Below are positions 1,402 through 22,750 of a DNA stretch of 64,000 nucleotides, piece after piece. Source of the stretch: an uncultured archaeon (lineage in GTDB: Archaea; Thermoplasmatota; Thermoplasmata; Thermoplasmatales; Thermoplasmataceae); the NCBI GenBank assembly GCA_000965745.1, contig CP009479.1, positions 310,001-374,000 on the forward strand, given 5' to 3'. A program made the translations under genes and the position numbers. The stretch's first letter is position 1, and each line of letters begins with the position of its first letter. Below the pieces are notes generated by a model. It worked only from the letters and a program-made list of their open reading frames with translations. It had not been told where the DNA came from and did no database searches.

Positions 1402-2925
1402 CCTTAACTCTTTAGTTTTTACGTAACATGTTGAGGCTCACTCCAAGATCCGTCACCAGCTCTCTCGCCTTCTTCGGTATCTCTCCCATGATTTCCCCTC
1501 CCTCCAGGGCGTATATCTTGATCCTTGACAGGATCAGGAGAATGTCTCTCACGCTGTATTTCCCATCGGTCCTGTTGAGTATCTGGAAGTGAATGTTCAG
1601 TGCGAGAAGGTTGAGGAAGAGATAGGAAAAGAGCATGTGATCGTCCCCGAGATATGACCGATCCGCCTCCAGATCATTCTTGAACACATTGAATGCGTAT
1701 TCAACATACTCTCGCTGCTTGTACAGCCTGTATATCCTCTCCGGGCTCTCTTTGAGGTCGGAGAGAAGATGCACCTTCCCGAATACTTGTGAACCCTCCA
1801 GGAATTGCTTCCGGCTTCTCTTTCCCTGCATGACCCTCTCGAGATAGTCCTTCTCCTCCTCCATCCTCAGTACCGGATCCTCGAATGCATACACTCCACT
1901 CACTGGATTCCAGTATTTCACAGGCCTGCCATCATAATCGAAAACGCCGGTGAACTCACTCGAAGCAGGGATCAGCGATGAGTTCCTCTTCAGCGGAATT
2001 ATGTAGTCAAGATGCAGTTTCCTGAGCTTCTTTATGTTATCAGCCGAGTAAAATCCCTTGTCCGCTATGATCACGCACCGCTCAACCCCGGCCATGATCA
2101 TGGTAGCCTTCATCGTGGAAACATCCCTGATCGAGCCCGGAATGATCCGTATGAATGTTGGCTCTCTCCTCGTGGATGAAAACAGCATCATCAGGTTGAT
2201 CTGTGGCAGATGTGTTCCATGGGAGTTGTGGCCCATCTCCAGAATCGGTATGCTGGAGGATCTGGAGAATATTGCCGTGCTGTCGATGAGTATGTATTCC
2301 CCTCTTGCGCACAGTGATCGCATGACCTCAATCATGCTTTCCTCCGGAAGGGATGAAAGCATTCCAGAGATCGATTTTGCAGTCATGCCTTCATTGAAGA
2401 CCTTGGATAACCATGTCTTCTCGAAGAGATATCGTACCGACTTCATGGGGAGAGGTTGTATCTCCCTGAGAAGCACGTAGATCATGATCCTCTCATGCAG
2501 GTAAGGAAATACCTGCCTCAGCATGGGGAGGATGCTCTTCTCGGCGATTCCGTAGAGAAGGGCAATGTTCCCGTATTCGTAGTCTCCCCTTATCCCCGAT
2601 ATCGCCTGCTTCTTCACGATGCCCCGGGGAGTGACGACTCCAAGGTACTCCGGTGGAAGCGATACTGTCTTCTTCCTTACCCTGTCCCACTTCGTTCTGG
2701 GCCTGTATGCGTAATAATTGTTGCCAAAGTTCCTGATCTGGATCCTGGGTCCCTTGTATTTCTGCACCCAGTCAGGTAATTCATCCATGATACGTACATA
2801 TACATAACATGCATATAAGAATTCCGCGAGGGAAGCATATTCAGAAAGAACTCGAAAAGGCCGACAGATAAAACGAAGTCACGCGATAGGGAACAAACTG
2901 TTATGTAAAACTGGAAGAGTTAAGG
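1402..2925 (-). mobile_element. Complete IS1634-like insertion sequence
   Basis: The element is 1,524 bp and holds one transposase gene. The left end (from 1402) and the reverse complement of the right end (to 2925) match over about 28 bases: both begin CCTTAACTCTT and then share AGTTTT, AC and TAACA. It is flanked by a 6-bp direct repeat CTTAAT (1396-1401 and 2926-2931), consistent with IS1634-type target duplications. Joining the flanks restores the 3' part of a tRNA-Lys gene, so the element jumped into an attachment-site remnant. Intact ends, duplication and gene suggest a recent insertion. Confidence 0.85.
1412..2788 (-). CDS. DDE transposase, IS1634/IS4 superfamily
   Basis: A 458-residue transposase that fills its element. 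The catalytic triad can be read as Asp in the LIDSTA segment, Asp in the IADKGF segment, and Glu in a Y-[QR]-x-R-E-x-x-E-x-A-F context near residue 375, the classic Y-R-E signature region of IS4-like transposases. The reading frame is intact and ends about 10 bases inside the left terminal repeat. A diverged C-terminal fragment of a related transposase lies at 25.4-25.74 kb. It should catalyse cut-and-paste movement of this element. Confidence 0.85.
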   Translation of the reverse strand: MDELPDWVQKYKGPRIQIRNFGNNYYAYRPRTKWDRVRKKTVSLPPEYLGVVTPRGIVKKQAISGIRGDYEYGNIALLYGIAEKSILPMLRQVFPYLHERIMIYVLLREIQPLPMKSVRYLFEKTWLSKVFNEGMTAKSISGMLSSLPEESMIEVMRSLCARGEYILIDSTAIFSRSSSIPILEMGHNSHGTHLPQINLMMLFSSTRREPTFIRIIPGSIRDVSTMKATMIMAGVERCVIIADKGFYSADNIKKLRKLHLDYIIPLKRNSSLIPASSEFTGVFDYDGRPVKYWNPVSGVYAFEDPVLRMEEEKDYLERVMQGKRSRKQFLEGSQVFGKVHLLSDLKESPERIYRLYKQREYVEYAFNVFKNDLEADRSYLGDDHMLFSYLFLNLLALNIHFQILNRTDGKYSVRDILLILSRIKIYALEGGEIMGEIPKKARELVTDLGVSLNMLRKN

Positions 2926-3085
2926 CTTAATCCATAGGTCGGGGGTTCGAACCACCTCGGACCCGCCATATCTCTGTTTATTTCTGTGAGCATTTTCATT
3001 ATTGGATTTTTATTGAATATGAGAAAGTAGTCCATCTTTCAGTTTTGAATGTGGGAGAAACTTGGATTAGGCCAACTTGAAAGAA
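2926..3085 (+). repeat. Attachment-like repeat 1: tRNA-Lys 3' remnant plus flank
   Basis: Together with 1393-1401, from which it is separated by the IS1634 insertion, this restores the anticodon loop (CTCTTAA, anticodon CUU), variable loop, T arm and acceptor 3' strand of a tRNA-Lys, ending with G-CCA at 2965-2968. The T stem has a mismatch (ACCACC instead of ACCCCC), so the copy is decaying. About 115 bp downstream is shared with repeats 2 and 3, including segments reading CTGTGAGCATTTTCATTA and CATCTTTCAGTTTTGAATG. There is no 5' half. The arrangement matches attR-type remnants left by archaeal elements that integrate in tRNA genes. Confidence 0.8.
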
Positions 3086-3214
3086 ATTGCGATAATAATT
3101 TTAAATAAAATTGAATAAAGTGATGCGTCCAATTTATAAGGAGACTTCGTGATAGTTTGTCCACATCCTGTAAATCGTTCCCATTAAAAGTAGTTCCAAG
3201 TATCATTGCTTAAT

Positions 3215-4009: not shown

Positions 4010-4131
4010 ATTTATTAAGTTGCTGGCACATCGAGGCCAGGGGTTTAAAGCTTAATCAAACGAAATTCAGCATAATTTATTTATACCGTTGAGTAAATGT
4101 TTCATTAAGTAGGAGTTTACCAAGATTTAGA

Positions 4132-4788: not shown

Positions 4789-4802
4789 GTGGGAATATAT
4801 AT

Positions 4803-5084: not shown

Positions 5085-5252
5085 ATTCCCTTCTTAAAAA
5101 GTCTCTTTTAAATTTTACTTTGTATTAGTCCATTTTGGCAAACGATAGATTTTTTGGGCATTTAATGGCCTTTTGCCATCATGCCGCATTGTAAGTGATG
5201 GGGGAGTGGAAGATTAGCGGAACCACGTTGACTTTGTAATGACAAAATCAAT

Positions 5253-7092: not shown

Positions 7093-7096
7093 TGCA

Positions 7097-8011: not shown

Positions 8012-8040
8012 TAAAGTGAGTCTATGTTTGCCATCTTGTC

Positions 8041-8050
8041 ACAATATAAA
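8041..8050 (-). promoter_or_regulatory. TATA-like box of the SIR2 operon
   Basis: On the minus strand this reads TTTATATTGT. It begins about 39 and ends about 30 bases upstream of the TTG start at 8011. It implies that the 304-, 302- and 330-residue genes are transcribed together, separately from the winged-helix gene that ends at 8256. Confidence 0.45.
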
Positions 8051-8255
8051 CTGCAATATTAAAATTTAGCAGACGGCATACACTCTAGTGCATGAATGTG
8101 CTATGGCATTTTCAAAATCTTTGAATGGCCCATAAACTATGAGACAATAACCCCGTTTAGGACCATGACTAAATTTGGCTCAAGTCAAGGATTTCCAACC
8201 TTAGCAAGCATTTTGATAAACAGTAATTTTTTTGGACTAAGAGTATAGCTAGATA

Positions 8256-9440: not shown

Positions 9441-9653
9441 TGGTGATTAGTCAGATTGAGTATTTTAGCTTTTGTAAATTTAACATATGATTCTTTTTCT
9501 CCTAATTTACATAAGTCTCTTTCATATCCCGTTATACCTTACAGAATTGTTAAAACATGCATAGGATTCATCTATAAGTGATCCCCGCCCATTCAAAAAA
9601 ATTGCCATATCTGTTGTGGATAACATTAGCATTGATTTCGTTTTTCTTATTTT

Positions 9654-10921
9654 GACATTGTCAACTTCCGGTTGATAAGTACCGGTGATACCAGTAGGAT
9701 GTCCGCAGGAGACCTTCTTCAGTCTTGAACCGGTGCTTAAAAAGCCATGACTGTACTGAGAAATGCTGTTCCGCCTTGTCTGAGGTCTTCTCCACATCAG
9801 GATTCTCAAGATACAGGAACACCTCCTTCCTGTGCTTTTTCACCCATTTGAGGAAGGATGCCATGATACTGTCACCGCCATAGAGGCTGTTGATCCTGTC
9901 AAGCATTATTTCAACGATCTCCCTCTCACTCATGCCCTCAGTGAGCTTCAACACCGCATCCCGGTTCTTTCCCAGCTTCTTCAGGTTTGTTCTATTCTGG
10001 AAAAACATGTACTTGACCAGTCTCTTTGCCATGTCCAGATGACCTTCCATCTTTGCATCGGCTATCCTGTGCGCAAGATCCTTCTCAATGTGGAAGAGGC
10101 ACCTCTGCCTCATTATCCGTATATTGAGGCTTGAAGATACCTTTTCCAGTGCGGATTCGTAATGGTACCCGTCTGTTGTGATGAATATATGATCCGGGAT
10201 GGCGAACCTCGAGAGCGACCTGATTAAGAATCCTGCCAGTGTATCCTCCTTCAGGTCGTCAAGTATCTCTTCCACAAAGTTTCCGTTCTTTGAATCCTTC
10301 AGGAGTGCCCTGTATTTCTCCATTCCGTCAATGTGTGCGTACTGCTCGTCATACACGAAATATCCGGAAGAATCCATCACCATGTCTGGTAGGGAAGGAA
10401 CATATTTCCTGATGGTTTCATGGGATATGATCACGTTTCCTATGATGCGGAAGAGGTCTGCTGCCTTCCTCAGGGATGTCTTCACCCTGGTCTTGACGCC
10501 CTTCTCCCTGACATCCTCAGGGTAATGCTTTCCGTAACCGTAATTTGGAGGCCTTGCAACGAATGAATATCTGCAGTCCCTGCAGATATATCTCTGCACC
10601 CTGAATACAGTACCATTCTCCAGGGTCCTGAGGCATGTTCCGTTTCGAACCACGTTCTTTGAGCGGCACTGCGGGCACATGGGATTCATGAAGCTGATCA
10701 GATCGTTTTCCTTCAGTTCAATGTCCATCATGGGAATGTTGTTGACCAGGAAGAGAGGAGAAGAATCAACTGAGGCATAATCGTCAAGGGATGTGGAAAC
10801 CCTCTTGAATTCAGTGTAGGGCGCCTTCCTCAGTCGCATGTGATGGAATACTACAATCATATTTCATGATTTCGGTTACGTGATGAGGGCTGAGTGGAGT
10901 CAACTAAATTTTGACAATGTC
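9654..10921 (-). mobile_element. Complete insertion sequence with 8-bp target duplication
   Basis: 1,268 bp. Left end and reverse-complemented right end share GACATTGTCAA, then TT and GTTGA, as a 22-base imperfect inverted repeat. The element is bracketed by a perfect 8-bp direct repeat CTTATTTT (9646-9653 and 10922-10929). It carries one intact transposase gene, so it is probably young and possibly active. Relics of the same family lie at 25.74-26.14 kb and at 32.35 kb. Confidence 0.9.
9661..10860 (-). CDS. DDE transposase with N-terminal zinc ribbon
   Basis: 399 residues. A zinc ribbon lies at about residues 60-95 (CPQCRSKN and CRDCRYSF), followed by a helix-turn-helix-like segment and a DDE domain. 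Likely catalytic Asp residues are in YAHIDG and TTDGYH, and the Glu is near AEQHFS close to the C-terminus. The CLFHIEKD segment between them resembles the C-x2-H motif of MULE/IS256-like transposases. The 8-bp target duplication also fits that broad group, but the exact IS family is not assigned. The frame is intact. Confidence 0.8.
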   Translation of the reverse strand: MIVVFHHMRLRKAPYTEFKRVSTSLDDYASVDSSPLFLVNNIPMMDIELKENDLISFMNPMCPQCRSKNVVRNGTCLRTLENGTVFRVQRYICRDCRYSFVARPPNYGYGKHYPEDVREKGVKTRVKTSLRKAADLFRIIGNVIISHETIRKYVPSLPDMVMDSSGYFVYDEQYAHIDGMEKYRALLKDSKNGNFVEEILDDLKEDTLAGFLIRSLSRFAIPDHIFITTDGYHYESALEKVSSSLNIRIMRQRCLFHIEKDLAHRIADAKMEGHLDMAKRLVKYMFFQNRTNLKKLGKNRDAVLKLTEGMSEREIVEIMLDRINSLYGGDSIMASFLKWVKKHRKEVFLYLENPDVEKTSDKAEQHFSVQSWLFKHRFKTEEGLLRTSYWYHRYLSTGS

Positions 10922-10929
10922 CTTATTTT

Positions 10930-11674
10930 GGAGATGGGGAAATACGGACGATAAATTTGCTCTGTATCTTGTAATAATCAATTGGTTTTTTGAATTAACC
11001 CGTAATACACGGAAAACGTGACATAATTGGCATCTGCAAGGAAGAAGAGTTGAACTACCTTTTTTATGACTTCACAACGGCTTTTCGATGGTAGGAATCA
11101 AGTTAAGAGGAAGGGTATCAAAGCATATTCTCTGACTTGATTCTCCTTGGGGTAATAGATCGTGATAGACGACACCTGCAGATTTTTGATGAGTTAGCAC
11201 CACTTGTTCAAGAAGTGATAGGTGAATCATGACATCAGTTCAGTCAAGACAATCACTTATACTTGAGTGCCTTCTGGAGATAACCAGAGCCTCGACATTG
11301 ACAATTGAGGTTAGTAGTTAATAAATAATATTTCCAAGATATTTGAAATAAATCTGACATGTGGTAGTCTCTTTTACAACTTCCAACATAAACCTAATAC
11401 CTTAATTTTGAGACTCTTAAGTATTTAATAATATTATGAATTTGGGTTAAATTCATCCTCAACGTGACTCATCAAAATACCATTGCTATTACTAGCGGAA
11501 TTAAAAAAGCCAACCATCTAGAAGTGGGAATAAAAATGAGATTGCATTCTGTTATTGTATAGTAAGGAGATAATTAAAAATGCGAAAATAGTAATTGCGA
11601 AATCCCTAAAACAAAGGGTTTCCAAGCACTCAAAAATTCAGTAAATATTTAAATATGTGTAGTAAATTTTAATC
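10930..11674. other. AT-rich non-coding stretch, possible replication or control region
   Basis: About 740 bases with no plausible gene on either strand. It is AT-rich and contains short inverted sequences such as a CCCGTAATACACGG segment near 11000, a half-match to the TGTATTAC..GTAATACA palindromes in attachment repeats 2 and 3. It lies directly before the ribbon-helix-helix and replication ATPase genes, where plasmids and viruses often keep their origin, but no iterons are clear. A TATA-like ATTTAAATAT at 11646-11655 serves the next gene. Confidence 0.4.
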
Positions 11675-11857
11675 ATGAAATACCGCAAAAATAGGTATGA
11701 TGAAGGAGAGACTTGTCGGTCCACAATACTGACAGTCTCCCTCCCAAAGGAGATGCTGGCCACAATAGATGAAGCGGTACGAGTCCTTAAGACCGACCGC
11801 TCGAAGGCTGTGAGATACGCCATAGAACAGGTGTACGGGCTCATGAAAAAGGAGTGA
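11675..11857 (+). CDS. Ribbon-helix-helix (CopG-like) DNA-binding protein
   Basis: 60 residues. After a basic N-terminus comes a strand (STILTVSLP) followed by two helices (EMLATIDEAVRVLKT and DRSKAVRYAIEQVYGLM), the standard RHH/CopG layout. It probably binds as a dimer to its own promoter; a TATA-like tract sits 20-30 bases upstream of the ATG. It starts 7 bases before the replication-ATPase frame, and the pairing is typical of archaeal plasmids and viruses, where such proteins control copy number. The specific target is inferred. Confidence 0.75.
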   Translation: MKYRKNRYDEGETCRSTILTVSLPKEMLATIDEAVRVLKTDRSKAVRYAIEQVYGLMKKE

Positions 11858-11864
11858 AAAAAAG

Positions 11865-13387
11865 ATGGTAGAAGGTCAAGTTAATATACCAACCACGAAT
11901 ATAAATTTTTCCGATAAGAGGCTCTGCTACCGGCTGGACAGCAAAGTAAGTCTTGCATTCGAAAAGGGATCATTCTTCAAGGTTACGGAAAGGAATGGCC
12001 AGCAGAAGATGGAGACACTTTGCTCTTATCCACTCTCGATTATAGGTCTAGTCAAGCAAGGAAATCAGTGGAGAATCAAATACAAGTTTTCGGGAGAGGA
12101 GAGAACAGACACGATTCTTACAATGGGCGAGCTTATCAGACAGCAGATGAGCCCAACATCGAACATCATGTCTTACTTCAAACAGTTCATTCATAAATTC
12201 AGAGATGACTGTGAGCGCAATGGTTTATTCGAAGTCTGGCACGACTCTGTATCGGTACAAGATGGGTTAATGTAATCGCAGTAGAGAACTTACCAGAGCA
12301 GAATGCGAAGAATATCCTACTGATTCTCAAGAAGCTTGCAGAGTTGTCAACGAACAAAGACGCATTCCTTACGAGCATGTATTACAACCTGATGGCACCT
12401 CTTAGCTTCGAGATAAGGAACAAAGGCCAGAAGTTCCCATACAGGCTTAGTTCTGGAAGGACTCATGGAGGAAAGACGACCATAGAATCTCTTTTCACGC
12501 TACAAGGGTTCAACCAAGAATTGTCGCAGAGAAAGGAGACAATCAACACAGTGAAGACAATCTTTACCTTTGGACAGCAAGTTGAGAAGTCAAGTCTTCC
12601 CTTTGTCATTGACGACATAAAGAATGAATGGCTCGAAAAATACGCTGAAGAGTTGAAGGGAGCAACTGATGGGGTCAAATTCATGGCCAGAGGGACTAAG
12701 GCACAGACGCAGAATGAGTGGCGTATGCTTGGTATGCCAGTATTTACCATGAATGCTGAGCCAGACATACCCCTTGCCCTGATGGACAGGATAATCATTA
12801 GTCGGTACACGGAGGAGCACTCGAAGAGACAGGACAAGGCAAAGTTCGAATCCTTAAAGAGGGCATTGAAACCTGGGTTCATGCTTAAGCTCATAATGGG
12901 GACCTTAGCAGGTAAGAATCTGGAGGAGATCCTCAACAATGTGCACTACAGGGCCAACAACGACAACGAGGTCAATGGACTTCTTATCAAGTACTCTGAA
13001 GGGCTCACAGTCGAACTCTGTAAAAAGTACGGGATAGAACCACTCAGCACTGGGCTTGTTCTTGAGTCAGTGGAGCAATCACTCATAGAGAGATTTTGCA
13101 CATATGTCTACACAAAAGTGAGTACCTTATCTAATTGGGACAATGCTCGTTCTCTGAAGTACTGCGAAGTTAATAAGGGCAAAGATAAGAAAGAACAATT
13201 CATCTATATCTCCTCTGAAGGGTTCAACGATTTCGTTAAGGACCACAGACTGAAGAAGATGACCATGACTGACTTCGTAAATGAGGTGAACAGTCCTGAT
13301 ATAAGGGTCAAGACAGTCTACAACCGTTCTTGGGTCTTTCTCCTTTTAAGTTGTTGTCATAGTATATCCTACAGGGATTGGTTTTAA
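11865..13387 (+). pseudogene. Frameshifted replication helicase/ATPase
   Basis: The first frame (11865-12275, 136 residues) ends in TAA. The next frame is open through the same point and continues without a start codon as R-W-V-N-V-I-A-V-E-N-L, running on to 13387. Together they make one protein of about 500 residues with a shift near 12255-12270. The second part has a P-loop (GRTHGGKTT at 12455-12481), a Walker B-like FVIDD near 12610 and an N-polar sensor-like TMNAEP, resembling SF3/DUF927-type helicases of plasmids and viruses. The last residues look atypical, so the 3' end may also be truncated. No slippery heptamer is seen, so decay or a sequencing error is more likely than programmed shifting. 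Confidence 0.7.
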
Positions 13388-13508
13388 GACCACAATTTAC
13401 ACGCCTAACAACATTTTGTTTTATGATGTCTGTGGTGCAGATTCCTTTAAAACCTACGAATCTCTCAGGATTTCCGTCATTATAAGTAACCTTGAGTGCA
13501 ATATCCAT
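13308..13508 (-). CDS. Small protein downstream of the HsdR-like nuclease
   Basis: 66 residues starting at ATG 13508, preceded by a purine-rich ribosome-binding stretch (GGAGAGGCGAT). It contains two cysteines and basic residues, and ends with a Gly/Asn/Arg-rich tail. It follows the nuclease gene by 27 bases and probably shares its transcript. Its 3' end overlaps the tail of the oppositely oriented helicase pseudogene by about 80 bases, so one of the two termini is probably not native. No family is recognised. Confidence 0.4.
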   Translation of the reverse strand: MDIALKVTYNDGNPERFVGFKGICTTDIIKQNVVRRVNCGLKTNPCRIYYDNNLKGERPKNGCRLS

Positions 13509-13535
13509 TTTTATCGCCTCTCCTGAAGCAAAGGA

Positions 13536-14609
13536 TTATCTGAAGATGCTCGAAGTGTCCTTAGCCTTAAGCATTTCTTCAAGCGTTTCCACAAATCTAA
13601 TTCCGGGCATAAAGAAATCTGGCCCCCTCTTAATTGGCTTAAAATCTTTAATCTCTTCCCCCAGGGAAAAAAAGACAGTTTTTCCACTCGAGTAATCATC
13701 ATTATCTTCGAGTGCATCAAAACAATTCTTCCAGCTTTTGGCTATTGACATATCACCTCGTTTTATTTCTTTAATAGCGTATAAATGGGTTATTGCACTT
13801 TGTTCTGGTTCGTAGGTCGCGAGATACTTTGGTTGCCTGTTTCTCCTCAATTGGAAAAATCCATAGCCTCCCGTTTCTTCAATGAAGTTTATCCCAGTGC
13901 AGGGACTATAGGTATTAGCAGAACAAACAACTACTTCCGGAGAATTAGCAGCCTTACTGTTATTATTATCGTAGTTATATGTACCGTTTTGCTCTGCTTG
14001 TGGGCCCTGTGGGGCCAAAGTAACTTCTATGTCCAGATTATCAACTATAAAATCGGGTGAAACTTTCAATTTATCCGAAATATAATCTAATACTTGGCTT
14101 CTTATTTGTGAAAAATCTTCCTTTATAAAACTAGATAATTTGTCTCTTAGACCCTCTTGCTTTTGAATGGAATCCAGGAAGTTTGGATATGAATCTTTTG
14201 ACAGGCCAAAAAATATCTCTATGCTCTGCCCACTTACCCACCGATAAATTGGGGTACTTTTGTCTATATGGTATACTAACAACTCCCTTCCGTTATAGAG
14301 ACAACCATATTGGGCCCTGACAACCCCAATATATGAGTTTACTTGGTCAGAATAGGCTTCCAAATCATACTCCTCTGGACCTTTAGCTTCAATTACTAAG
14401 CGAGAGTTTCCATTTTCAAGAACATAATCTGGGGTGATCCAATTGCCAGAGCCCACAGGATAGGATTCCTCAATTTTTACGTCTTCAACAAGATCCCAGC
14501 CCAGTTCCTCTATCAATTTAGTGAGCACCAACTGTCTTAAGCGACTTTCTTTTCCCAATATTTCTTCACCTAGTTTTACAAGTCTTGCTACTTCCATTCT
14601 ACGTTCCAT
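13536..14609 (-). CDS. HsdR N-terminal-like PD-(D/E)XK nuclease
   Basis: 357 residues from ATG 14609, chosen over a GTG at 14627 because GGGAGG lies 8 bases upstream. Residues 20-110 match the type I restriction R-subunit N-terminal nuclease domain (HSDR_N_2 type): a leading RQLVLTKLIEELGW helix, a TPDYVL motif providing the active-site Asp, and VIEAKGP providing the E-x-K. There is no helicase domain, so this is not a full R subunit. Residues 215-357 are an unknown C-terminal domain rich in Asn, Tyr and Gly. No methylase or specificity gene is adjacent. Stand-alone proteins of this type occur in mobile elements; the role is probably nucleic-acid cleavage but is untested. Confidence 0.75.
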   Translation of the reverse strand: MERRMEVARLVKLGEEILGKESRLRQLVLTKLIEELGWDLVEDVKIEESYPVGSGNWITPDYVLENGNSRLVIEAKGPEEYDLEAYSDQVNSYIGVVRAQYGCLYNGRELLVYHIDKSTPIYRWVSGQSIEIFFGLSKDSYPNFLDSIQKQEGLRDKLSSFIKEDFSQIRSQVLDYISDKLKVSPDFIVDNLDIEVTLAPQGPQAEQNGTYNYDNNNSKAANSPEVVVCSANTYSPCTGINFIEETGGYGFFQLRRNRQPKYLATYEPEQSAITHLYAIKEIKRGDMSIAKSWKNCFDALEDNDDYSSGKTVFFSLGEEIKDFKPIKRGPDFFMPGIRFVETLEEMLKAKDTSSIFR

Positions 14610-14825
14610 GTATTTATCCTCCCGCACTCATTTTAGCTATGTTTTCTAGACTCATAATATCCAGCACCCACTTGTCGAAATACAAGGTATTTTTTCCGTC
14701 AGCAAATTTGCCACGAGTGTAAAGTGAGAGAAATATTGCAAGTCATTCTCATTACTCAAAAAAATAATATAAAATTTCCTATGTTTTACAAGACTTAATG
14801 AATTCAAAAACCAAATTAAAGATCG

Positions 14826-16072
14826 TGTGCATAAAGTGATGTAATTTTAAAGAGGTCCCGCAAAATTTGGAATTAGGAGGACCAAAAGATGCAGGACCAG
14901 TTGAACATGGTAGAGGAATTAATAAGCACTTTCCTGAATGACAATCAGGAAGGGAAGAAACAGCTGATCGAGTGGTTTCTGAACGAAGTCATGGACAGGG
15001 AAGCGATGGATCAGATCAGGGCGGAGTGGTATGAAAGATCTGAGCAGAGGAAAGCACACAGGAATGGCAAGAGGAAGAGATCACTGAAGACATCGGACGG
15101 CGATCTGATGCTGGAGAAGCCCCAGATACCTGAGTTTCCATTCGAAACACAGGTATTTGACCGGTACAGCAGAGTCGAGAGAGCAGTTGAATCAGCAATC
15201 CTGGAATCGTACATACAGGGTGTCTCAACAAGGAGAGTGAAGAGCATTGTTGAGACCCTTGGGATACGAAAAGTATCCCCGTCCTATGTCTCATCACTCT
15301 CCTCCGATCTGGATCAAAAGGTGAAGGAATTCCTTGAGCGTCCCATAGAAAAGGAGATCAGGTACATGTATGTGGATGCCACATACATCAAGGTACGCCA
15401 GGATTCAAGGTACAAAAGCATGGCGCTGTACATTGCTGCTGGCGTGAGAGAGGATGGATACAGGGAAATCCTGGGAGCAAGGCTTTATGACTCTGAGACA
15501 GAAATCGACTACGAATCATTCTTCGATGATCTTAAGGATCGCGGTCTGAGAGGCTTAGAGCTGGTGATATCAGATGGCCATAAGGGAATCAGGGAGGCTG
15601 TACTCCGATCTTTTCCGGGTGCATCATGGCAGTTCTGCCATGTGCATTTCATCAGGAACCTGATGAAGAAGATTCCAAAGAAAAGATGGGGGTCAGTATC
15701 ACTCATAGTGAAGGAATCACTTGAGAATCCTTCACTCATGCCTCTGGCACAGCAGGCATTGATGGATCATGGAATGGACAGGGCTGCTGAGATGTACGAG
15801 CGATGGTCGGATTCACTGTACAACTATCAGTCCTGTCCACAGCAGCACTGGCGCAGGATAAGAACAACAAACATGATGGAGCGTCTCAATTACGAGATCA
15901 AGCGTCGTACAAAGAAAGTGGGTGCGTTTCCATCTGAGAAAGCGTTGATCAGGTTGGCAGGAGCGGTGTTGATGGACGTGAATGAGGAGTGGATCACTGG
16001 GCGAAAGTATTTGAGAATGGAGGAGTTGCACGGTGGGGGAGTCCCTCTTTAATTTACAGCACTTGGTGCACA
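14826..16072 (+). mobile_element. IS256-family insertion sequence
   Basis: About 1.25 kb. The left end (from 14826) and the reverse-complemented right end (to 16072) align over about 30 bases with shared blocks TGTGCA, AAGTG, TGTAA and TTAAAGAGG. It carries one intact transposase. No 8-9 bp target duplication is visible, so the exact outer ends are uncertain or a flank was rearranged. The right end cuts into a ribbon-helix-helix-like gene read from the other strand. Confidence 0.75.
14889..16052 (+). CDS. IS256-family transposase
   Basis: 387 residues, about the normal length for the family. The DDE residues are visible: Asp in YMYVDATYIKV (near 159), Asp in LVISDGHKGI (near 229) and Glu in TTNMMERLNYEIKRRT (near 331). 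The C-x2-H motif (WQFCHVHFIRN) lies between the second Asp and the Glu, as in IS256 and MULE transposases. AGGAGG lies 8 bases upstream of the ATG. The frame is intact, and its stop lies inside the right inverted repeat. Confidence 0.92.
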   Translation: MQDQLNMVEELISTFLNDNQEGKKQLIEWFLNEVMDREAMDQIRAEWYERSEQRKAHRNGKRKRSLKTSDGDLMLEKPQIPEFPFETQVFDRYSRVERAVESAILESYIQGVSTRRVKSIVETLGIRKVSPSYVSSLSSDLDQKVKEFLERPIEKEIRYMYVDATYIKVRQDSRYKSMALYIAAGVREDGYREILGARLYDSETEIDYESFFDDLKDRGLRGLELVISDGHKGIREAVLRSFPGASWQFCHVHFIRNLMKKIPKKRWGSVSLIVKESLENPSLMPLAQQALMDHGMDRAAEMYERWSDSLYNYQSCPQQHWRRIRTTNMMERLNYEIKRRTKKVGAFPSEKALIRLAGAVLMDVNEEWITGRKYLRMEELHGGGVPL

Positions 16073-16408
16073 TGACCTGCGAGATAGGTATTCCACTATG
16101 TTTTGTGGTGAACTCAATATCAAGCCCTTAAAGTATTTATTGAGGTAGTTTTCAAGGCTCTTTTGGTAGTTTTTCTCGTATCTATTGGCCTTCATCCAGG
16201 TCATAAAACCTTCAGACATATTCACAACTAATTGGACTTGTGGTTTCACTTCATTTGAAGAGGGTTGACCAAATGGTGTAAAGCCACCATTGAAAAACTC
16301 ATTCAATCTTGCGTTCACCCATTGGTATAAGTTGATGCCAAAATCCTGTGCTTTTTCAACTAAATCCCCTCTTAGATTTAGTGTGGTAATTTTATTGCCT
16401 CTTTCCAT
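16049..16408 (-). pseudogene. CcdA/RHH-like antitoxin gene truncated by IS256
   Basis: 119 residues. The N-terminus (residues 7-35) reads as a strand followed by two helices (TTLNLRGDLVEKAQDFGI, then WVNARLNEFF), the layout of RHH or CcdA-like antitoxins. A second helical part follows from residue 60. The last few residues and the stop are encoded by the end of the IS256 element, so the original C-terminus and any downstream partner were lost. A TATA-like TTTTAAATAC lies about 20-30 bases upstream of the ATG. The protein may still fold. Confidence 0.55.
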
Positions 16409-16642
16409 ATTACTTATTATCTCGCAGTATTTAAAACGTTACAAAATTTTTGAGTTCCTTTATTGTGGGAAAATGCCTATTTGATGGGGTGAGAGAAAGA
16501 ATATAAGAAAAATTATATTTGCAATAAAGCAAGTTTGACAGATACAGAGCACCAAACAAGTTTGGATAACGAACTTATTTTACCGCAATAATAAATAAAT
16601 ACCACTAAATTGTATTCTTTTGGCTACAAAGGGAATGCGGAA

Positions 16643-18394
16643 ATGACTTTATCTGAAGACATCGAGGAATTATATTTATCAGAAATACTCAAAATGACTG
16701 GAAGGGAGGAACGTTTAACTAGAAATCCTTTACTAACTGAATACCAAAAACAGGGTTTTAAAAATGTACTAGCTTCATTGATAGATAAGAATGCTCAAAA
16801 TAGGGATTATCTAGCTAAATGTGATTTATTTAATAGAAGTCTTTTAATTTTAGGGATAAAACCTGTAAGAAACTCTTTTTTTGAAATAGTATTTGAAAAT
16901 ACAGATTTTTCTAACATTGACCAAGTAAAATTAGCAGTAAAAAGGTTCAGAGTCATTGCCATGTTAGAGTATGGTAGTTTTAGATTCGCTTACAAGATTC
17001 TAAAATTTGGTGAAGACAAACTTAGAGATATCACTCTGAAGGAAATATATGAAACATATTTTCCCAAAGGTGAGAAGTTAAAGGAGAGGAACAAGAAATA
17101 TAATGATAAAGTGGAACCAATTGGATTGAGGAACATTCCTCCAAGCACATTATTCGTATTGGGGTACTTGGCAGGTGAGCAGTCGAAGAGAGTCAATGAT
17201 GCAAGAGTCAAGCTCAAAGAAATACTAGAAGATGCTCTCACCAAGCAGAACATGAAGAATTTTGCCGATTTGAAAAAACTTGCAGAGAAGCACAATGAGA
17301 AAAATTTGAACCTTCTGGCAACTAATGCGGAAATTTCTGGTATGGAACGGTTATTGCTCCCTTCTTTCTATGCACCAAACGAAACTTATTCTGATGTGAT
17401 AAGGGGCATTCTAAAGGACTGCATCTCAATAGGTCAAGATGAATTTGATCAAGCGAGGAGGAACGGAAGTTTGAATACCACTACATATCTTGGATTGCAG
17501 GAAATTGATGCTTATCTAGCAACTTCTATGAGAGACCCGCTTCACTTTACCACAAATCATGCGTTCATCAAATCTTTGTTCTCAAATCCTCAATTAAAAG
17601 ATTGGAAAATTCATTATTTCGACCCTACCCAATCATACATGGAGAATAGAATAGAGAAAGGTTTAGTAGAGTCCTTAATGATTAAACGGTCTAAAGTAAC
17701 GATTTACAATGCTCAAGAATCTGATACCTTCGGGAAAGATTCAGAAGCTGCAGTAGCACTAGCTCAAGGTAAAGAAGTGATCGTATATGTTAGCAGGCTA
17801 TTCTCCAAATCACCTGAATTTAAGGAATTATATGAGATAATAGATAAAGCTACTGAATTCGATACACCTGATGAACTTGTAAATATCTTCGTTGAAAGGA
17901 AATTTTTGACCTCGGAAGAGGCTAAACAACTTTTAGTTCCTGGGAAATCTAAGGGAGATGCAATAGAACGGGTGTCTAGTGAGTATTCAAACAAGATCTT
18001 ATCAAAATTTGATGAACTCCAAATTGCAACTGAACTTATGTATTATGGTTATGATCCAGAATGGGAAAAGGGCTATCCTGCAAGTAATGCTTCTAAACAT
18101 ATTTCAAAGTTAGAGAGGAGGGCACTAACATTTAAAGATGTTCACCCATTATCATTTCAGGTATCGGCACTAGATGGTGTCGCTAGGGGCGTTATCGTCA
18201 CACGTTCTGTTGATGATACTGCCCATGTACTCAAAGGACTCCTTGTGGGAAATCTAAGTTATGATATTATAGATAATGATTCAAATGCTATTCTTTTGGA
18301 GCAAAAAACTCGTTCTCCTATGAGGGTGGTCACAAAAGAGCCAACCTTAACAACTTCATTCTGGAGTGAGTTTTCGCGTGAAACCCGAAATTGA
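16643..18394 (+). CDS. Large protein with deoxyribosyltransferase/TIR-like core
   Basis: 583 residues from ATG 16643; a TTG at 16610 is in frame but too close to the TATA-like tract at 16587-16602. Residues 1-280 are helical and unrecognised. Residues 288-385 look like a nucleoside 2-deoxyribosyltransferase (DRHyd/TIR-like) Rossmannoid: strand AYLATSM with an Arg-Asp-Pro following, HYFDPTQSY, a GLVESLMIKRSKVTIY strand-helix unit, and DSEAAVALAQGKEVIVY. In that last segment Glu368 matches the catalytic Glu of the family. A C-terminal part (HPLSFQ ... GVARGVIV) is conserved in similar large bacterial proteins as I recall them. Such cores cleave N-glycosidic bonds of nucleotides or NAD+, and several are defence effectors. 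The biological role here is inferred. Confidence 0.65.
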   Translation: MTLSEDIEELYLSEILKMTGREERLTRNPLLTEYQKQGFKNVLASLIDKNAQNRDYLAKCDLFNRSLLILGIKPVRNSFFEIVFENTDFSNIDQVKLAVKRFRVIAMLEYGSFRFAYKILKFGEDKLRDITLKEIYETYFPKGEKLKERNKKYNDKVEPIGLRNIPPSTLFVLGYLAGEQSKRVNDARVKLKEILEDALTKQNMKNFADLKKLAEKHNEKNLNLLATNAEISGMERLLLPSFYAPNETYSDVIRGILKDCISIGQDEFDQARRNGSLNTTTYLGLQEIDAYLATSMRDPLHFTTNHAFIKSLFSNPQLKDWKIHYFDPTQSYMENRIEKGLVESLMIKRSKVTIYNAQESDTFGKDSEAAVALAQGKEVIVYVSRLFSKSPEFKELYEIIDKATEFDTPDELVNIFVERKFLTSEEAKQLLVPGKSKGDAIERVSSEYSNKILSKFDELQIATELMYYGYDPEWEKGYPASNASKHISKLERRALTFKDVHPLSFQVSALDGVARGVIVTRSVDDTAHVLKGLLVGNLSYDIIDNDSNAILLEQKTRSPMRVVTKEPTLTTSFWSEFSRETRN

Positions 18395-18611
18395 AGCACA
18401 ACTATATGAATTCACAATCACCTAAATTATAGAAACTCTCAAAGGGTATTTAGGGGTCCAAAACACTGAATGTTATTTACACGCAAAGAGAAGGATACCT
18501 TTCCAAATTATCAAAGTAAATTTTTCAATCATTTCCTCTATCAGTTTGATAACTCATTGCCATGTAATACTCATTGGACAAAACAGTCAGAAATGCTTCC
18601 AGAAGTAAGTC

Positions 18612-18800
18612 GGACTCTTAATCCATAGGTCGGGGGTTCGAACCCCTCCGGACCCGCTAAATACCTGTTTGCTTCTGTGAGCATTTTCATTAGTAGAATT
18701 TTTTAAGACGGCAGAAAGGTATCCATCTTTCAGTTTTGAATGTGGGGGAACTTAGGATTATGCCAGCTTGAAAGTAATTCTTGTATTACGGGTAATACAG
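18612..18800 (+). repeat. Attachment-like repeat 2: tRNA-Lys 3' remnant plus flank
   Basis: Bases 18612-18657 repeat the tRNA-Lys(CUU) 3' part from the anticodon stem to the discriminator, with one change in the T stem. The following 140 bp match the flank of repeat 1 (GCATTTTCATTA, CCATCTTTCAGTTTTGAATG) and repeat 3 (GGCAGAAAGGTATCC). The end contains a perfect palindrome TGTATTAC-GG-GTAATACA (18782-18799) that recurs with one base changed in repeat 3. No 5' tRNA half is present. It closes the 15.6-kb segment on its left and opens the 2.6-kb toxin-antitoxin segment on its right. Confidence 0.85.
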
Positions 18801-18942
18801 ATTGGAAGGCAAATATTTATGAGAACTTCTCACTAATTTATTCAACCATAGAAAATAACGGTTCAAATATCGACTGAGGCCCTACAACCGACGTCTTACA
18901 GTCACTTATTCCACTGACTTGGAAAGACCTAATATTATACAC

Positions 18943-18956
18943 ACACATATATGTGT
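18943..18956. promoter_or_regulatory. Palindromic operator candidate of the first VapBC
   Basis: ACACATATATGTGT is a perfect 14-bp palindrome located between the TATA-like AATATTATAC (18931-18940) and the ATG at 18963. Toxin-antitoxin operons are normally repressed by the antitoxin at such sites; binding here is inferred. Confidence 0.45.
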
Positions 18957-18962
18957 GATATC

Positions 18963-19202
18963 ATGGGAAGCAAAAACATTTCTATCTCCGACGAAGCTTA
19001 TTCCAGACTGAAAAAGTTCAAGGGAAAGAATGAGAGTTTCACAGACGTGATAAACAGGTTGACAAACAAAGCCACTCTGCTGGACCTCAGGGGAACACTA
19101 ACACAAGATGAGGCAGAATCTATGCTGAAAAATATAAACGAAGCGAGGAAGTTGAGCGGGAAAAGATACCAGAACATTAGCGAGATGCTGGAGCATCAAT
19201 GA
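18963..19202 (+). CDS. vapB: VapB-type antitoxin (DUF217-like)
   Basis: 79 residues from ATG 18963, placed about 25 bases after the TATA-like box. The N-terminus (KNISISDEAYSRLKKFKG, then ESFTDVINRL) matches the archaeal VapB/DUF217 antitoxin pattern: a DNA-binding N-terminal half and an acidic C-terminal tail that wraps the toxin. It overlaps the toxin gene by 4 bases (ATGA), giving translational coupling. It should neutralise the neighbouring PIN toxin and repress its own operon. Confidence 0.8.
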   Translation: MGSKNISISDEAYSRLKKFKGKNESFTDVINRLTNKATLLDLRGTLTQDEAESMLKNINEARKLSGKRYQNISEMLEHQ

Positions 19203-19591
19203 TTGCTGATACCACATTCCTCATAGACATAATGAGGGGAGACCGTTCAGCCATAGAAAAGGGAGAGGAACTGGAAAGAGATGGGGTGCAGGTCAACATA
19301 ACTACAGTTTCCGTATTTGAACTATACGTGGGGCTTAACTCAAGTATCAGGCCAATAGAGGAGAAGAACAAAATCGACAAGGTTCTTGGAAATATTGTCG
19401 TTCACCACTTCGATTTTGATGCTGCAAGAGAGGCCGGAGAAATATTCGCAGACAAAAAACGCAGGGAGCTAACCATTGATCCAGAAGACGCTATGATAGC
19501 AGGGATATGCATCTCCAATGAAGAACCCATTCTGACTAGAAATGTCAACCATTTCTCAAACATTGGCAGACTAACAGTTGAGTCTTATTGA
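19199..19591 (+). CDS. vapC: VapC PIN-domain ribonuclease toxin
   Basis: 130 residues, normal VapC length. The PIN acidic residues are visible: Asp4 in IADTTFLID, Glu41 in SVFELYVG, and Asp97 in DPEDAMIAG. A strand ending in TRNVNHF follows, as expected for the conserved C-terminal site. VapC toxins cut structured RNAs, usually tRNA or rRNA, in a Mg2+-dependent manner; the target here is unknown. It follows the antitoxin with a 4-base overlap. Confidence 0.88.
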   Translation: MIADTTFLIDIMRGDRSAIEKGEELERDGVQVNITTVSVFELYVGLNSSIRPIEEKNKIDKVLGNIVVHHFDFDAAREAGEIFADKKRRELTIDPEDAMIAGICISNEEPILTRNVNHFSNIGRLTVESY

Positions 19592-19771
19592 ATTATGGTG
19601 ATATCAGTTTGACTCTGTTTCTTCAAACTTTGGTACCCTACTGCAAGGGGCTTTAATCACATGGACTGAATATCAGACAAAGGGCCTGACGGGAACTGAA
19701 TACAATTACCCCAGTTACGTATATCCTACAAGCAATCAGTACGACAGTTTCCATATAGCATATGAGTTGTC

Positions 19772-20314
19772 ATGACCTCTAATAAACCTAAATTCCTTCA
19801 CCTTCTATTTTTCTTTTTTGCTCTAGCATCAGTTGCCTTTATTCTCTATTATCAGGGTTATGTACTACGCCCCGTTTATTCCTCAGATTACTTCATCTTT
19901 TCGACACCCCGTATACTCAAGCTGTCGTTCCTATTGCCCTCAATACTGACTTTGTCGTTTTATCTTGAAATCTACTTGGGACTGTATGCATCTTTATTGA
20001 TTCTCTTGAAACATCATAGAGTAACATTCTTTTCGTTCTTCGTATCATTAATTTTGATTGATGTGATTACGTACCATCAATTTGAATATTTCTGGGGAAC
20101 TGCCTCGGGATATCAGGGTTTCCCACAAGGAGCGGGGTCTTGGCTAGTCCAGTATTATCATATATCTGGATACTATGCAGCCATTTTCAACGCTTCGTTT
20201 ATGATATCCATAGGAACTGCACTGGCCGGACTTGCTATTGGAATTAAATTGTTAATAGATAAATATAGAAAGGCACACACTGAGAAAGTCCCTGAAAAAT
20301 CTGGAAAAACATAA
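19772..20314 (+). CDS. Membrane protein, function unknown
   Basis: 180 residues with about four hydrophobic segments (near residues 9-28, 48-76, 82-98 and 133-161), many Phe and Tyr, and a short charged C-terminal tail rich in Lys and Glu. There is no signal or domain that I recognise. It lies between two VapBC modules, and the 180 bases upstream contain no gene. In style it resembles the two small membrane proteins at 24.77-25.36 kb, but clear homology is not visible. Confidence 0.6.
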   Translation: MTSNKPKFLHLLFFFFALASVAFILYYQGYVLRPVYSSDYFIFSTPRILKLSFLLPSILTLSFYLEIYLGLYASLLILLKHHRVTFFSFFVSLILIDVITYHQFEYFWGTASGYQGFPQGAGSWLVQYYHISGYYAAIFNASFMISIGTALAGLAIGIKLLIDKYRKAHTEKVPEKSGKT

Positions 20315-20432
20315 GAAAACGACAACAATCGGAGAATACGGAGAGTTGAGACACTCTATTCTGTTAAGACAGATTGATTACGGCAAGGACCTTCTGTTGA
20401 AATTTTCGTTTTACTACATGAAAAATGCTTAA

Positions 20433-20446
20433 TACGGCTAACCGTA
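20433..20446. promoter_or_regulatory. Inverted-repeat operator candidate of the second VapBC
   Basis: TACGG-CTAA-CCGTA overlaps the TATA-like GCTTAATA (20427-20434) and lies 11 bases before the ATG at 20458. The position suits autorepression by the ribbon-helix-helix antitoxin. Confidence 0.45.
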
Positions 20447-20457
20447 TATACGCCTGT

Positions 20458-20742
20458 ATGGTTAAGAAGAAAATAACCGTATCAATAGACAAACCTGTTG
20501 TTGACAGCGCTAAGTTGGCACTGTTGAAAAAAGGGAAAACAATGAGCGATTACATCGAAAGAACACTGAGATCACTCTCTACTTCAAGTATACTTAATGA
20601 TATTTGTGAAGAGCTCAACTTAAATTGCAGATATGTGACCGGAGAAGAAGTGGAGAGGCAAAGGCCCGATCTTACCGGGAAGGTACTGTCTGAAATGGAG
20701 GTCAGGGAGATGCGGGATGAGCGTAGCTCGCGTTTATCTTGA
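20458..20742 (+). CDS. vapB: RHH-type VapB antitoxin
   Basis: 94 residues from ATG 20458; the earlier in-frame start at 20425 would overlap the TATA-like region. The N-terminus KKITVSIDKPVVDSAKLA, then MSDYIERTLRSL, is a ribbon-helix-helix DNA-binding module. The acidic/basic C-terminal half is the likely toxin-binding tail. It overlaps the toxin gene by 26 bases. It belongs to a different antitoxin family from the module 1.5 kb upstream. Confidence 0.75.
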   Translation: MVKKKITVSIDKPVVDSAKLALLKKGKTMSDYIERTLRSLSTSSILNDICEELNLNCRYVTGEEVERQRPDLTGKVLSEMEVREMRDERSSRLS

Positions 20743-21157
20743 TACCAGTATATTGGTTAAGAGATACATAAAAGAGGCTGACAGCGAAATAGCTGATGCT
20801 GTTTTCCATCAGGCACAGCGTGGAGAAGCAGTTATCTGTTCCTCAGAAATCAATCTTGGAGAAGCGGCAGTTGTTTTCGATAAATACTCAAGAAAAGTCG
20901 GGATTGATGCACGAGACCGCTTACAGACCATGTTGAGTGAGTTGAATTCTCTGGAAAGATCTTCTGCTTTTGAAATCTATCCGGTTAGTAGCCATATAAT
21001 CAGGAAATCAATTAGTACTTTACTGGAGCATCATATTTACATTGTGGATGCGGTTCAACTTGAAACGTGTGTTGAGGCAGAAGGAACAGTTTTCTTCACC
21101 GCAGACAGGGAATTAAAAGCAGTGGCTGAAAGAATTGGTTTAAAAACACAATTGTGA
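20717..21157 (+). CDS. vapC: VapC PIN-domain ribonuclease toxin
   Basis: 146 residues. The PIN acidic residues are Asp9 (YLDTSILVKRY), Glu44 and Glu49 (SSEINLGEA), Asp111 (YIVDAVQLE) and Asp130 (FFTADREL), matching the widespread COG1848-like subgroup. It overlaps its antitoxin gene, and its stop lies about 110 bases before attachment repeat 3. It is probably an RNase; the target is unknown. Confidence 0.87.
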   Translation: MSVARVYLDTSILVKRYIKEADSEIADAVFHQAQRGEAVICSSEINLGEAAVVFDKYSRKVGIDARDRLQTMLSELNSLERSSAFEIYPVSSHIIRKSISTLLEHHIYIVDAVQLETCVEAEGTVFFTADRELKAVAERIGLKTQL

Positions 21158-21268
21158 TCTCCCGGAATAGTACATTGCAAGCGTTTTCAAAAGACCACCA
21201 TTTCTTGGAAATTAGTAAGTTTCACAGAGCACTTGTAATAATGAGGCCACAGACTTAGGTGCTGAGGT

Positions 21269-21455
21269 ACTCTTAATCCATAGGTCGGGGGTTCGAACCC
21301 CCTCGGACCCGCTTAATCCCAGTTTACTTGTGGGAGGACTTTCATTATGGGATTTTTGTGAGCTGGCAGAAAGGTATCCGTCTTTCACTTTGTATTGCGG
21401 GAGAATTTAGGATTAGGCTGGTTTGAATGTAATTTTTGTATTACAGGTAATACAG
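21269..21455 (+). repeat. Attachment-like repeat 3: tRNA-Lys 3' remnant plus flank
   Basis: Bases 21269-21312 carry the best-preserved copy of the tRNA-Lys(CUU) 3' part; its T arm, GGGGG-TTCGAAC-CCCCT, is fully paired. About 140 bp of flank is shared with repeat 2, ending in the palindrome TGTATTAC-AG-GTAATACA (21437-21454). The downstream flank is somewhat more diverged from repeats 1 and 2. No 5' tRNA half is present. This is the rightmost of the three copies. Confidence 0.85.
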
Positions 21456-21538
21456 GCAATATAATTTCGATGTGAAATTTTCGCGGAGTAATGGAAGTAG
21501 TTTGCCCATAATCTTTAATCCTATCAGAATAAACAAAT

Positions 21539-22039
21539 CTAAAGCGATTTCAGCATTGTTATTGCTGACTCACGAAATCCGGCTTTAGAGTAAAGGTTTC
21601 TAGCCACTGTATTAAGCGAATATACGTTTAGGAAAATTCTTGTTGCACCTTTGTTCTTGGCAAATGCCTCAATCTCAACTGTTGAATTCTTTACATAACC
21701 CTTTCCCCTTCGGTCTTCACCAATAAAAATATCCCAAAGGTATGCCTCTGTTGATCTCCTTTTCATTAGTTGCAACCAAAAAGAACCGATGCTATTGCTT
21801 TCCTTTACAGTGTGCATAAAATAGTGTCCTGGGGCCTTTATTCCATTAGTGACAAACTTTGTCAATTGCTGTTCCGCTTCTTGAAATGTAATGTCTGTGT
21901 CCATCATGCCTGCTTCCTGCATATGACCCATGCCTAAATTTACTATACGCTTCCAGTATTGAGGAAATTCATTCTCTCGAATCGGACTAAAATGAGCTAT
22001 GCAGGAATTATATTCGGAATATTCATAAATTTTGTCCAT
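21539..22039 (-). CDS. GNAT-family N-acetyltransferase
   Basis: 166 residues. The acetyl-CoA-binding motif A is clear near residues 110-120 (an IGEDRRGKGYVKNS segment, of the R-x-x-G-x-G/A type). It is followed by a helix and the typical LNVYSLNTVARNLYSKAGF motif B region with the conserved Tyr and Gly-Phe. It should transfer an acetyl group to an amine of a small molecule or protein; the substrate is unknown. It is a single gene with its own promoter. Confidence 0.85.
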   Translation of the reverse strand: MDKIYEYSEYNSCIAHFSPIRENEFPQYWKRIVNLGMGHMQEAGMMDTDITFQEAEQQLTKFVTNGIKAPGHYFMHTVKESNSIGSFWLQLMKRRSTEAYLWDIFIGEDRRGKGYVKNSTVEIEAFAKNKGATRIFLNVYSLNTVARNLYSKAGFRESAITMLKSL

Positions 22040-22221: not shown

Positions 22222-22536
22222 TTATGAGTTAAGGCTCTCTAACTTTTCCATGAGTTCTTCCAAAACAATGTCTTTCTTCTCTTTGCTCAAATGAAAAACC
22301 GTCTTGATTATAGTGTCACTCGTTATTGTGAAGATATAGTTCAGTTTGATTACACTATCTTGGGCAGCCCCTTCTCCCTTTGTGATTAGAACTCCTTTCA
22401 TTCGTAAATTTGTAGATATGCCCGCTATCACTATATTACCAAGTTCTTCAAACAACACCAGGGCTGGTCGAATTTTTGAGCCTTCGTTATCTGCGAAACG
22501 AACCCTGGTGATGATTACGTCTCCAGCTTTAGGCAT
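22222..22536 (-). CDS. MazF/PemK-like endoribonuclease toxin
   Basis: 104 residues, normal MazF length. The N-terminus (KAGDVIITRVRFAD, then KIRPALVLFEE) matches the conserved G-D-[IV] and [KR]-x-R-P-[AV]-[LV]-V motifs of the MazF/PemK beta-barrel. A typical ISTNL strand follows. It starts inside the last 8 bases of the upstream antitoxin gene. Known relatives cut single-stranded RNA at short sequences; the specificity here is unknown. Confidence 0.8.
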   Translation of the reverse strand: MPKAGDVIITRVRFADNEGSKIRPALVLFEELGNIVIAGISTNLRMKGVLITKGEGAAQDSVIKLNYIFTITSDTIIKTVFHLSKEKKDIVLEELMEKLESLNS

Positions 22537-22750
22537 TTTCCCAACCGCTGTAGTCTCCCTCGCTCCAGAGCTCTTTCATTTTAGTCTCCTGGGCCTTCTG
22601 TACAAAAATACCCAACTCTTGAGTTTCCTTTGCTTCAGTAATCAGCCTCAGTATAATCTCATTGTATGTTTCTCTAGGGTATCTTTTAACATTTTTGAGT
22701 GCCTGCACAACAGACTTCTTAAGCTGTATGGTTGTTATCTCTTCCTTCAC
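22529..22750 (-). CDS. Antitoxin partner of the MazF-like toxin
   Basis: 73 residues from a GTG at 22750, selected by AGGTGAT five bases upstream. The N-terminal TTIQLKKSVVQALKNVKR, then TYNEIILRLI, reads as a ribbon-helix-helix or VapB-like DNA-binding half. The acidic/Trp-containing tail (ELWSEGDYSGWENA) is the likely toxin-binding segment. It overlaps the toxin gene by 8 bases. The pairing of this type of antitoxin with a MazF-like toxin is seen in archaea. Confidence 0.75.
   Translation of the reverse strand: MKEEITTIQLKKSVVQALKNVKRYPRETYNEIILRLITEAKETQELGIFVQKAQETKMKELWSEGDYSGWENA

What the first reader, a model, noticed from the sequence alone, without database searches (positions are those of the whole stretch)
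18657..21312. A 2.6-kb att-flanked cassette made almost only of toxin-antitoxin modules
Between repeats 2 and 3 lie two VapBC pairs with different antitoxin families and one four-helix membrane protein, and nothing for replication or integration. It looks like a minimal passenger element kept by addiction modules, or a larger element eroded to its stabilisers. Each pair has a dyad over its promoter (18943-18956, 20433-20446).
Basis: partly seen in the sequence, partly recalled or inferred. Interest (0 to 1): 0.6.

Follow-up and report, generated by a model that had tools for sequence, protein, structure and literature searches.

The report
Toxin-antitoxin cassette in a tRNA-repeat array
In an acid-loving archaeon, a 2.6-kb stretch between two broken copies of a tRNA-Lys gene carries two toxin-antitoxin gene pairs and one membrane protein, and it is one unit of a wider array of such cassettes that recurs at tRNA-Lys and tRNA-Leu genes in many relatives, probably laid down by a virus-type integrase and kept because the toxins punish loss.

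Summary
Two copies of tRNA-Lys(CTT) 3' half plus a ~190-230-nt arm ("X") flank two intact VapBC operons and a four-helix protein, with no replication or integration gene. The finding is larger than stated. X is a repeat family in 27 of 77 genomes of the host family (10 of 19 genera). It lies 3' of tRNA-Lys(CTT) and 5' of tRNA-Leu(TAG/TAA/CAG), often in tandem every 1-2.5 kb, and the intervals are loaded with TA operons. In four genomes 13 of 30 PIN-domain genes lie in X arrays; about 0.4 were expected. A second arm joins the arrays to elements carrying SSV-type integrases (PF16795). The neighbouring 15.7-kb element holds the broken N-terminal part of that integrase.

The closest VapBC1 relatives (89-91%) are also flanked by tRNA-Lys remnants, in two other genomes. 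Their homology to the window stops 5-7 nt after the toxin, so the window cassette is probably two TA cassettes fused at ~19597.

Best reading: a passive, CIME-like TA cassette accreted by an SSV-type integrase at a tRNA anticodon stem-loop and retained by its TA modules. Structure and recurrence are shown; mobility and addiction are inferred.

The parts
2921..3189 (+). repeat 1: tRNA-Lys(CTT) 3' remnant (2922-2967) plus X arm; left end of the 15.7-kb neighbour element
   Evidence: profile match E=4e-73; 82% to repeat 2
16049..16408 (-). N-terminal part of an SSV-type integrase, cut by a Mutator-type IS (14889-16052)
   Evidence: 86% identical to the N-part of the integrase of the G033 tRNA-Lys element, whose C-part is PF16795, E=3e-37; IS PF00872
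18461..18612 (+). right arm (R arm) of the 15.7-kb element, abutting repeat 2
   Evidence: homologous to arms at rep4, own tRNA-Leu(TAG), G038, G040, G033 and, next to a complete integrase, G065
18613..18657 (+). repeat 2, tRNA-Lys(CTT) 3' remnant from the anticodon loop on (left att core of the cassette)
18658..18880 (+). X arm of repeat 2, ending in a promoter-like AATAACGGTTCAAATAT
   Evidence: profile match to X family; recurs behind tRNA-Lys and before tRNA-Leu in 27 genomes
18941..18957 (.). palindrome ACACACATATATGTGTG, likely VapB1 operator
   Evidence: conserved in L068 and L013
18963..19202 (+). VapB1 antitoxin (PF02697)
   Evidence: overlaps VapC1 by 4 nt
19199..19591 (+). VapC1 toxin, PIN domain
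   Evidence: E=1e-11; dN/dS 0.15 against L068
19596..19598 (.). point where homology to the two VapBC1 cassettes of G040 and G052 stops: inferred fusion joint
19772..20314 (+). 180-aa four-helix membrane protein; no clear relative in 77 family genomes
20432..20447 (.). palindrome ATACGGCTAACCGTAT, likely VapB2 operator
   Evidence: motif conserved upstream of 11 relatives
20458..20742 (+). VapB2 antitoxin (DUF6364-like, below cut-off)
20717..21157 (+). VapC2 toxin, PIN domain
   Evidence: E=1e-10; 84% to L012, 73% to the G040 cassette
21268..21312 (+). repeat 3, tRNA-Lys(CTT) 3' remnant (right att core of the cassette); no R arm on its left
21313..21542 (+). X arm of repeat 3, opening the next unit
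22222..22750 (-). MazEF-like TA pair of the next unit (PemK toxin 22222-22536, antitoxin 22529-22750)
   Evidence: 82% nt to copies in the G038 tRNA-Lys array

Best explanation
The 2.6-kb segment is a non-autonomous, CIME-like unit in a tandem array of toxin-antitoxin cassettes built at tRNA genes of Thermoplasmata. An SSV-type tyrosine integrase (PF16795) of larger elements recombines at the anticodon stem-loop. In tRNA-Lys(CTT) the incoming element restores the 3' half; in tRNA-Leu(TAG/TAA/CAG) it enters in the opposite orientation and restores the 5' half with its upstream region. The integrated end carries the tRNA half followed by the X arm; the other end carries the R arm next to int. 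Repeated integration, deletion and recombination between the repeats leave units bounded by tRNA half + X. TA modules remain because losing a unit frees the toxin. This unit arose when a VapBC1 cassette was fused at ~19597 to a membrane protein plus VapBC2. Shown: repeats, arms, cores, recurrence, TA enrichment, integrase linkage, purifying selection. Inferred: integration, excision, addiction, fusion.
For: Repeats far above chance. X in 27/77 genomes, 10/19 genera, in tandem, on the core-outward side of tRNA-Lys or tRNA-Leu where such a tRNA is adjacent (one array starts beside tRNA-Val). Right arm shared between tRNA-Lys and tRNA-Leu sites. In G033 an element between intact tRNA-Lys and a remnant carries PF16795 and the R arm; in G065 a complete 324-aa integrase abuts the R arm and a tRNA-Leu(TAG) half. 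The window neighbour holds the same integrase N-part. Occupied versus near-empty site: tRNA-Lys to the next shared gene is 4.5 kb in G040 and 0.18 kb in same-genus G039. VapBC1 relatives with tRNA-Lys remnants in G040 and G052 end at the same point. 13 of 30 PIN genes in X arrays, expected ~0.36. Module order at tRNA-Leu(TAG) differs among G005, G038, G072, G073; RelBE and a methyltransferase occur in both Lys and Leu(TAA) arrays. dN/dS 0.10-0.15.
Against: No PF16795 integrase remains in this genome, and repeat 3 lacks the R arm, so the unit may be immobile today. The window array is ~234 kb from the intact tRNA-Lys, so a rearrangement or secondary site must be added. Most TA families stay at one tRNA type, which vertical inheritance would also give. 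Addiction was not tested. X function is unknown. Relatives are mostly draft MAGs, and no free circle or virus with this att was found.
Confidence: 0.68

Rival explanations
1. Eroded island: one larger integrase-bearing element between repeats 2 and 3 lost everything but its TA stabilisers by deletion.
For: The adjacent 15.7-kb element is visibly decaying (truncated integrase, IS insertions); the cassette lacks an R arm.
Against: VapBC1 with X already exists as a small cassette in G040, ending at the same base as in the window; many other units are equally small, so small size is the norm, not an end state of this copy.
Confidence: 0.17
2. The arrays are inherited repeat clusters reshuffled only by homologous recombination between X/tRNA repeats; no site-specific mobility of TA cassettes has occurred since an ancestral integration.
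For: The same VapBC sits at tRNA-Leu(TAA) in six genomes; repeats are long enough for homologous recombination; copies have diverged to ~80%.
Against: Patchy distribution (27/77), changing module order, near-empty sites in the same genus, and module sharing between different tRNA loci.
Confidence: 0.12
3. The TA pairs are ordinary chromosomal VapBC genes that happen to lie between tRNA fragments.
For: Distant VapBC1 and VapBC2 relatives lie together without detectable repeats in G038 and G044.
Against: Strong clustering of PIN genes in X arrays and flanking remnants around the nearest VapBC1 relatives.
Confidence: 0.03

Closest known systems
CIMEs (cis-mobilizable elements) formed by tandem accretion of ICEs/IMEs (PMC5704250)
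   Same: att-flanked, no integrase or transfer genes, in tandem with a decayed integrase-bearing element at a tRNA-Lys gene
   Different: archaeal, SSV-type integrase, 1-3 kb units centred on TA modules, many units per genome, a long conserved arm at each joint
TA cassettes of chromosomal superintegrons (for example PMC11551772)
   Same: arrays of small cassettes in which TA modules are thought to prevent loss
   Different: boundaries are tRNA halves plus X, not attC hairpins; no integron integrase is linked; cargo faces both ways and the TA operons appear to have their own promoters
SSV-type and pTN3-like archaeal integrative elements (PMC8371274)
   Same: tRNA gene targets; anticodon-loop crossover for SSV1; pTN3-like integrases use the 5' half
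   Different: here one arm family is found at the 3' half of tRNA-Lys and the 5' half of tRNA-Leu, and int is not split by att
TA-stabilised islands such as SXT with mosAT (PMC2654960)
   Same: TA proposed to counter loss of an integrated element
   Different: TA is nearly the whole cargo here; stabilisation is not demonstrated

Membership tests
CIME (cis-mobilizable element) | lacks integration and transfer genes | tested here: met
   ORFs and Pfam of 18657-21312 show only VapBC x2 and a membrane protein
CIME (cis-mobilizable element) | retains attL and attR | tested here: inconclusive
   core + X at both ends, but repeat 3 lacks the R arm
CIME (cis-mobilizable element) | moves when a related element in tandem is mobilised | not testable with these tools
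   needs an excision or transfer assay; the neighbour's integrase is broken
VapBC type II toxin-antitoxin | PIN toxin downstream of, and overlapping, a small DNA-binding antitoxin | tested here: met
   PF01850 in both toxins, PF02697 in VapB1, 4- and 26-nt overlaps; VapB2 only sub-threshold DUF6364
VapBC type II toxin-antitoxin | toxin RNase activity neutralised by antitoxin | not testable with these tools
   no assay
Integron cassette | attC sites and a linked integron integrase | tested here: not met
   the joints are tRNA halves plus X, homologous to tRNA loci; the only integrase linked to the arms is PF16795
SSV-type integrative element | encodes PF16795 integrase | tested here: not met
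   not in the cassette or this genome; N-part only in the neighbour

The most novel reading that the evidence does not exclude
Thermoplasmata carry an integron-like system of TA cassette arrays: an SSV-type integrase uses the near-symmetric anticodon stem-loops of tRNA-Lys(CTT) and, in reverse orientation, tRNA-Leu(TAG/TAA/CAG) to stack, shuffle and exchange 1-3 kb cassettes delimited by tRNA half + X, most of them holding a TA module. A more speculative extension, not tested and much less likely, is that the VapC toxins cleave the very tRNAs whose genes host them.
Probability: 0.35. Interest if true: 0.8.

Novelty: new variant of a known kind. Interest (0 to 1): 0.62.

Why it matters
If the arrays behave as inferred, they show that toxin-antitoxin modules can be the main cargo of site-specific tRNA cassettes, giving a direct test of whether TA modules exist chiefly to prevent loss of integrated DNA. 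They would also be a case of one attachment system using both halves of tRNA genes, with many natural occupied and empty sites to compare. The closest published survey found, on genomic islands of acid-mine archaea (PMC12302457), reports tRNA-flanked islands of 4-92 kb and TA genes; the parts read here do not describe such arrays.

Tried and rejected
X as an ordinary chromosomal flank of tRNA-Lys: rejected, because it is missing in many genomes and also lies before tRNA-Leu genes. X as a known RNA: no Rfam match in 2800-23500 at E<=0.1. Search for an attP-bearing virus with the G065 integrase in viral contigs: none. Degraded X next to VapBC2 of G033 at tRNA-Leu(CAA): suspected by eye, not significant. 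Remains of an internal remnant or X between VapC1 and VapB2 in the window: none significant. Left tRNA end of the G065 element: not on the contig stretch read. Membrane protein as shared cargo: no clear relative. PADLOC gave only weak hits in the neighbour element (SIR2-like). Structure prediction was not used; it would not separate the rivals.

Full report
Where it lies. The window is bases 310001-374000 of a single-contig 2.23-Mb genome. VapC2 relatives come mainly from Thermoplasmata MAGs, and 77 genomes of 19 genera were available as its family. The array region has 35-43% G+C against about 45-50% further right.

The observation. Two copies of the tRNA-Lys(CTT) 3' half lie at 18613 and 21268. 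They sit in a repeat that extends well past the tRNA: 187 nt at 82% without gaps and ~270-280 nt by profile. Other copies are at 2921 and at genome 1186703; the intact gene is at genome ~78.6 kb, also followed by a diverged X. Between repeats 2 and 3 are VapB1C1 (PF02697 + PIN), a four-helix 180-aa protein, and VapB2C2 (DUF6364-like + PIN). The dyads are at 18941-18957 and 20432-20447. Both are conserved just upstream of vapB in relatives, and conservation puts the starts at 18963 and 20458. All four TA genes are under purifying selection (dN/dS 0.10-0.15).

What the boundary is. Alignment of the copies defines the tRNA half followed by an arm, X. A sequence model of X finds it in 27 of 77 genomes and 10 of 19 genera: nine copies here, ten in G040, seven in G038. 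Copies are often in tandem 1-2.5 kb apart in one orientation. X lies after the 3' end of tRNA-Lys(CTT), or before the 5' end of tRNA-Leu(TAG), (TAA) or (CAG), on the antisense strand. In this genome the 5' part of tRNA-Leu(TAA) and its upstream region are duplicated around RelBE, VapBC and a membrane protein, and the 5' half of tRNA-Leu(TAG) is duplicated beside MazEF. The joints fall at the anticodon stem-loop: sense GGACTCTTAATCC for Lys and antisense GGACCCTAAATCC for Leu(TAG).

What made it. A second arm (R arm) is shared by repeat 2, by repeat 4, by the tRNA-Leu(TAG) site here and by sites in other genomes. In G033 the R arm ends a 6.7-kb element at the intact tRNA-Lys that carries an archaeal-phage integrase, PF16795, in two reading frames. 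In G065 a complete 324-aa integrase abuts the R arm and a tRNA-Leu(TAG) half. The 15.7-kb element left of our cassette keeps the N-terminal part of that integrase (86%), cut by a Mutator-type IS, along with SIR2-like and HSDR_N proteins. No PF16795 gene survives in this genome. The integrase is therefore a good candidate for building these arrays, but not an active one here.

How this cassette formed. Homology between the window and the VapBC1 cassette of G040 runs from the tRNA end through X and VapBC1 to 19598 (84.9%). In G052 it runs from 18852 to 19596 (87.3%). In both relatives a tRNA-Lys remnant follows about 60 nt after the toxin; in the window the membrane protein and VapBC2 follow instead. 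VapBC2 is the last unit before the remnant in the G040 cassette behind the intact tRNA-Lys. The simplest account is fusion of two cassettes at about 19597 with loss of the internal joint. This is inferred: no trace of the lost joint was found.

Why TA modules. Of 30 PIN-domain genes in four genomes, 13 lie in X arrays that cover about 1% of sequence (Poisson ~2e-16; the window size was chosen by me and the array extents are approximate). By eye and clustering, roughly 35 TA operons sit in the arrays examined. Orders differ at tRNA-Leu(TAG). RelBE and a methyltransferase are shared between Lys and Leu(TAA) arrays. Same-genus G039 is nearly empty at tRNA-Lys where G040 holds about 4.3 kb. Retention by addiction is the natural reading, as shown experimentally for SXT (PMC2654960), but it is not shown here.

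Limits. TA families mostly keep to one tRNA type, so vertical inheritance contributes. VapBC2 is common outside arrays, and VapBC1 and VapBC2 neighbour each other without detectable repeats in G038 and G044. Most relatives are draft MAGs. Repeat 3 lacks an R arm, and the array is ~234 kb from the intact tRNA, so today it may be a stranded relic.

Placement. It works like a CIME in a tandem accretion (definition in PMC5704250), with the att criterion only partly met. It is not an integron cassette. In archaea, use of the tRNA 5' half was described as unique to pTN3-like integrases (PMC8371274); shared arms at 3' and 5' halves look new relative to what I could read.

Noticed in passing
L031 7790-7993; L170 7763-7966; L177 1021-1227; L065 8027-8188; DNA match at window 8121-8238: A conserved ~67-aa ORF without Pfam match recurs in the arrays, in several cases right behind the promoter-like end of X. 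It might be an accessory recombination factor or a regulator.
   Followed up: partly
window 2922-18612: A 15.7-kb decayed element with SIR2-like (5253-6245), HSDR_N (13536-14627) and several unknown proteins, interrupted by insertion sequences.
   Followed up: partly
L179 3363-6239 and L122 9561-10758 (G065:C5): The stretch next to the complete SSV-type integrase and R arm carries a 958-aa protein that looks like a restriction-methylation enzyme (by eye, not scanned); a homolog follows X at tRNA-Leu(TAA) in G032 (L177).
   Followed up: no
window 34106-34642: A PF00589 integrase (251-aa frame) elsewhere in the window, 3 kb from tRNA-Phe at 37240.
   Followed up: no
L065 9027-9098 and 8932: In G038 a tRNA-Lys array starts ~95 nt downstream of an intact tRNA-Val(GAC) rather than tRNA-Lys.
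   Followed up: no
L014 7646-8431; L074 5119-5953: A zinc-ribbon membrane protein (78% nt) lies beside tRNA-Lys remnants in both G040 and G043, another candidate cargo.
   Followed up: no
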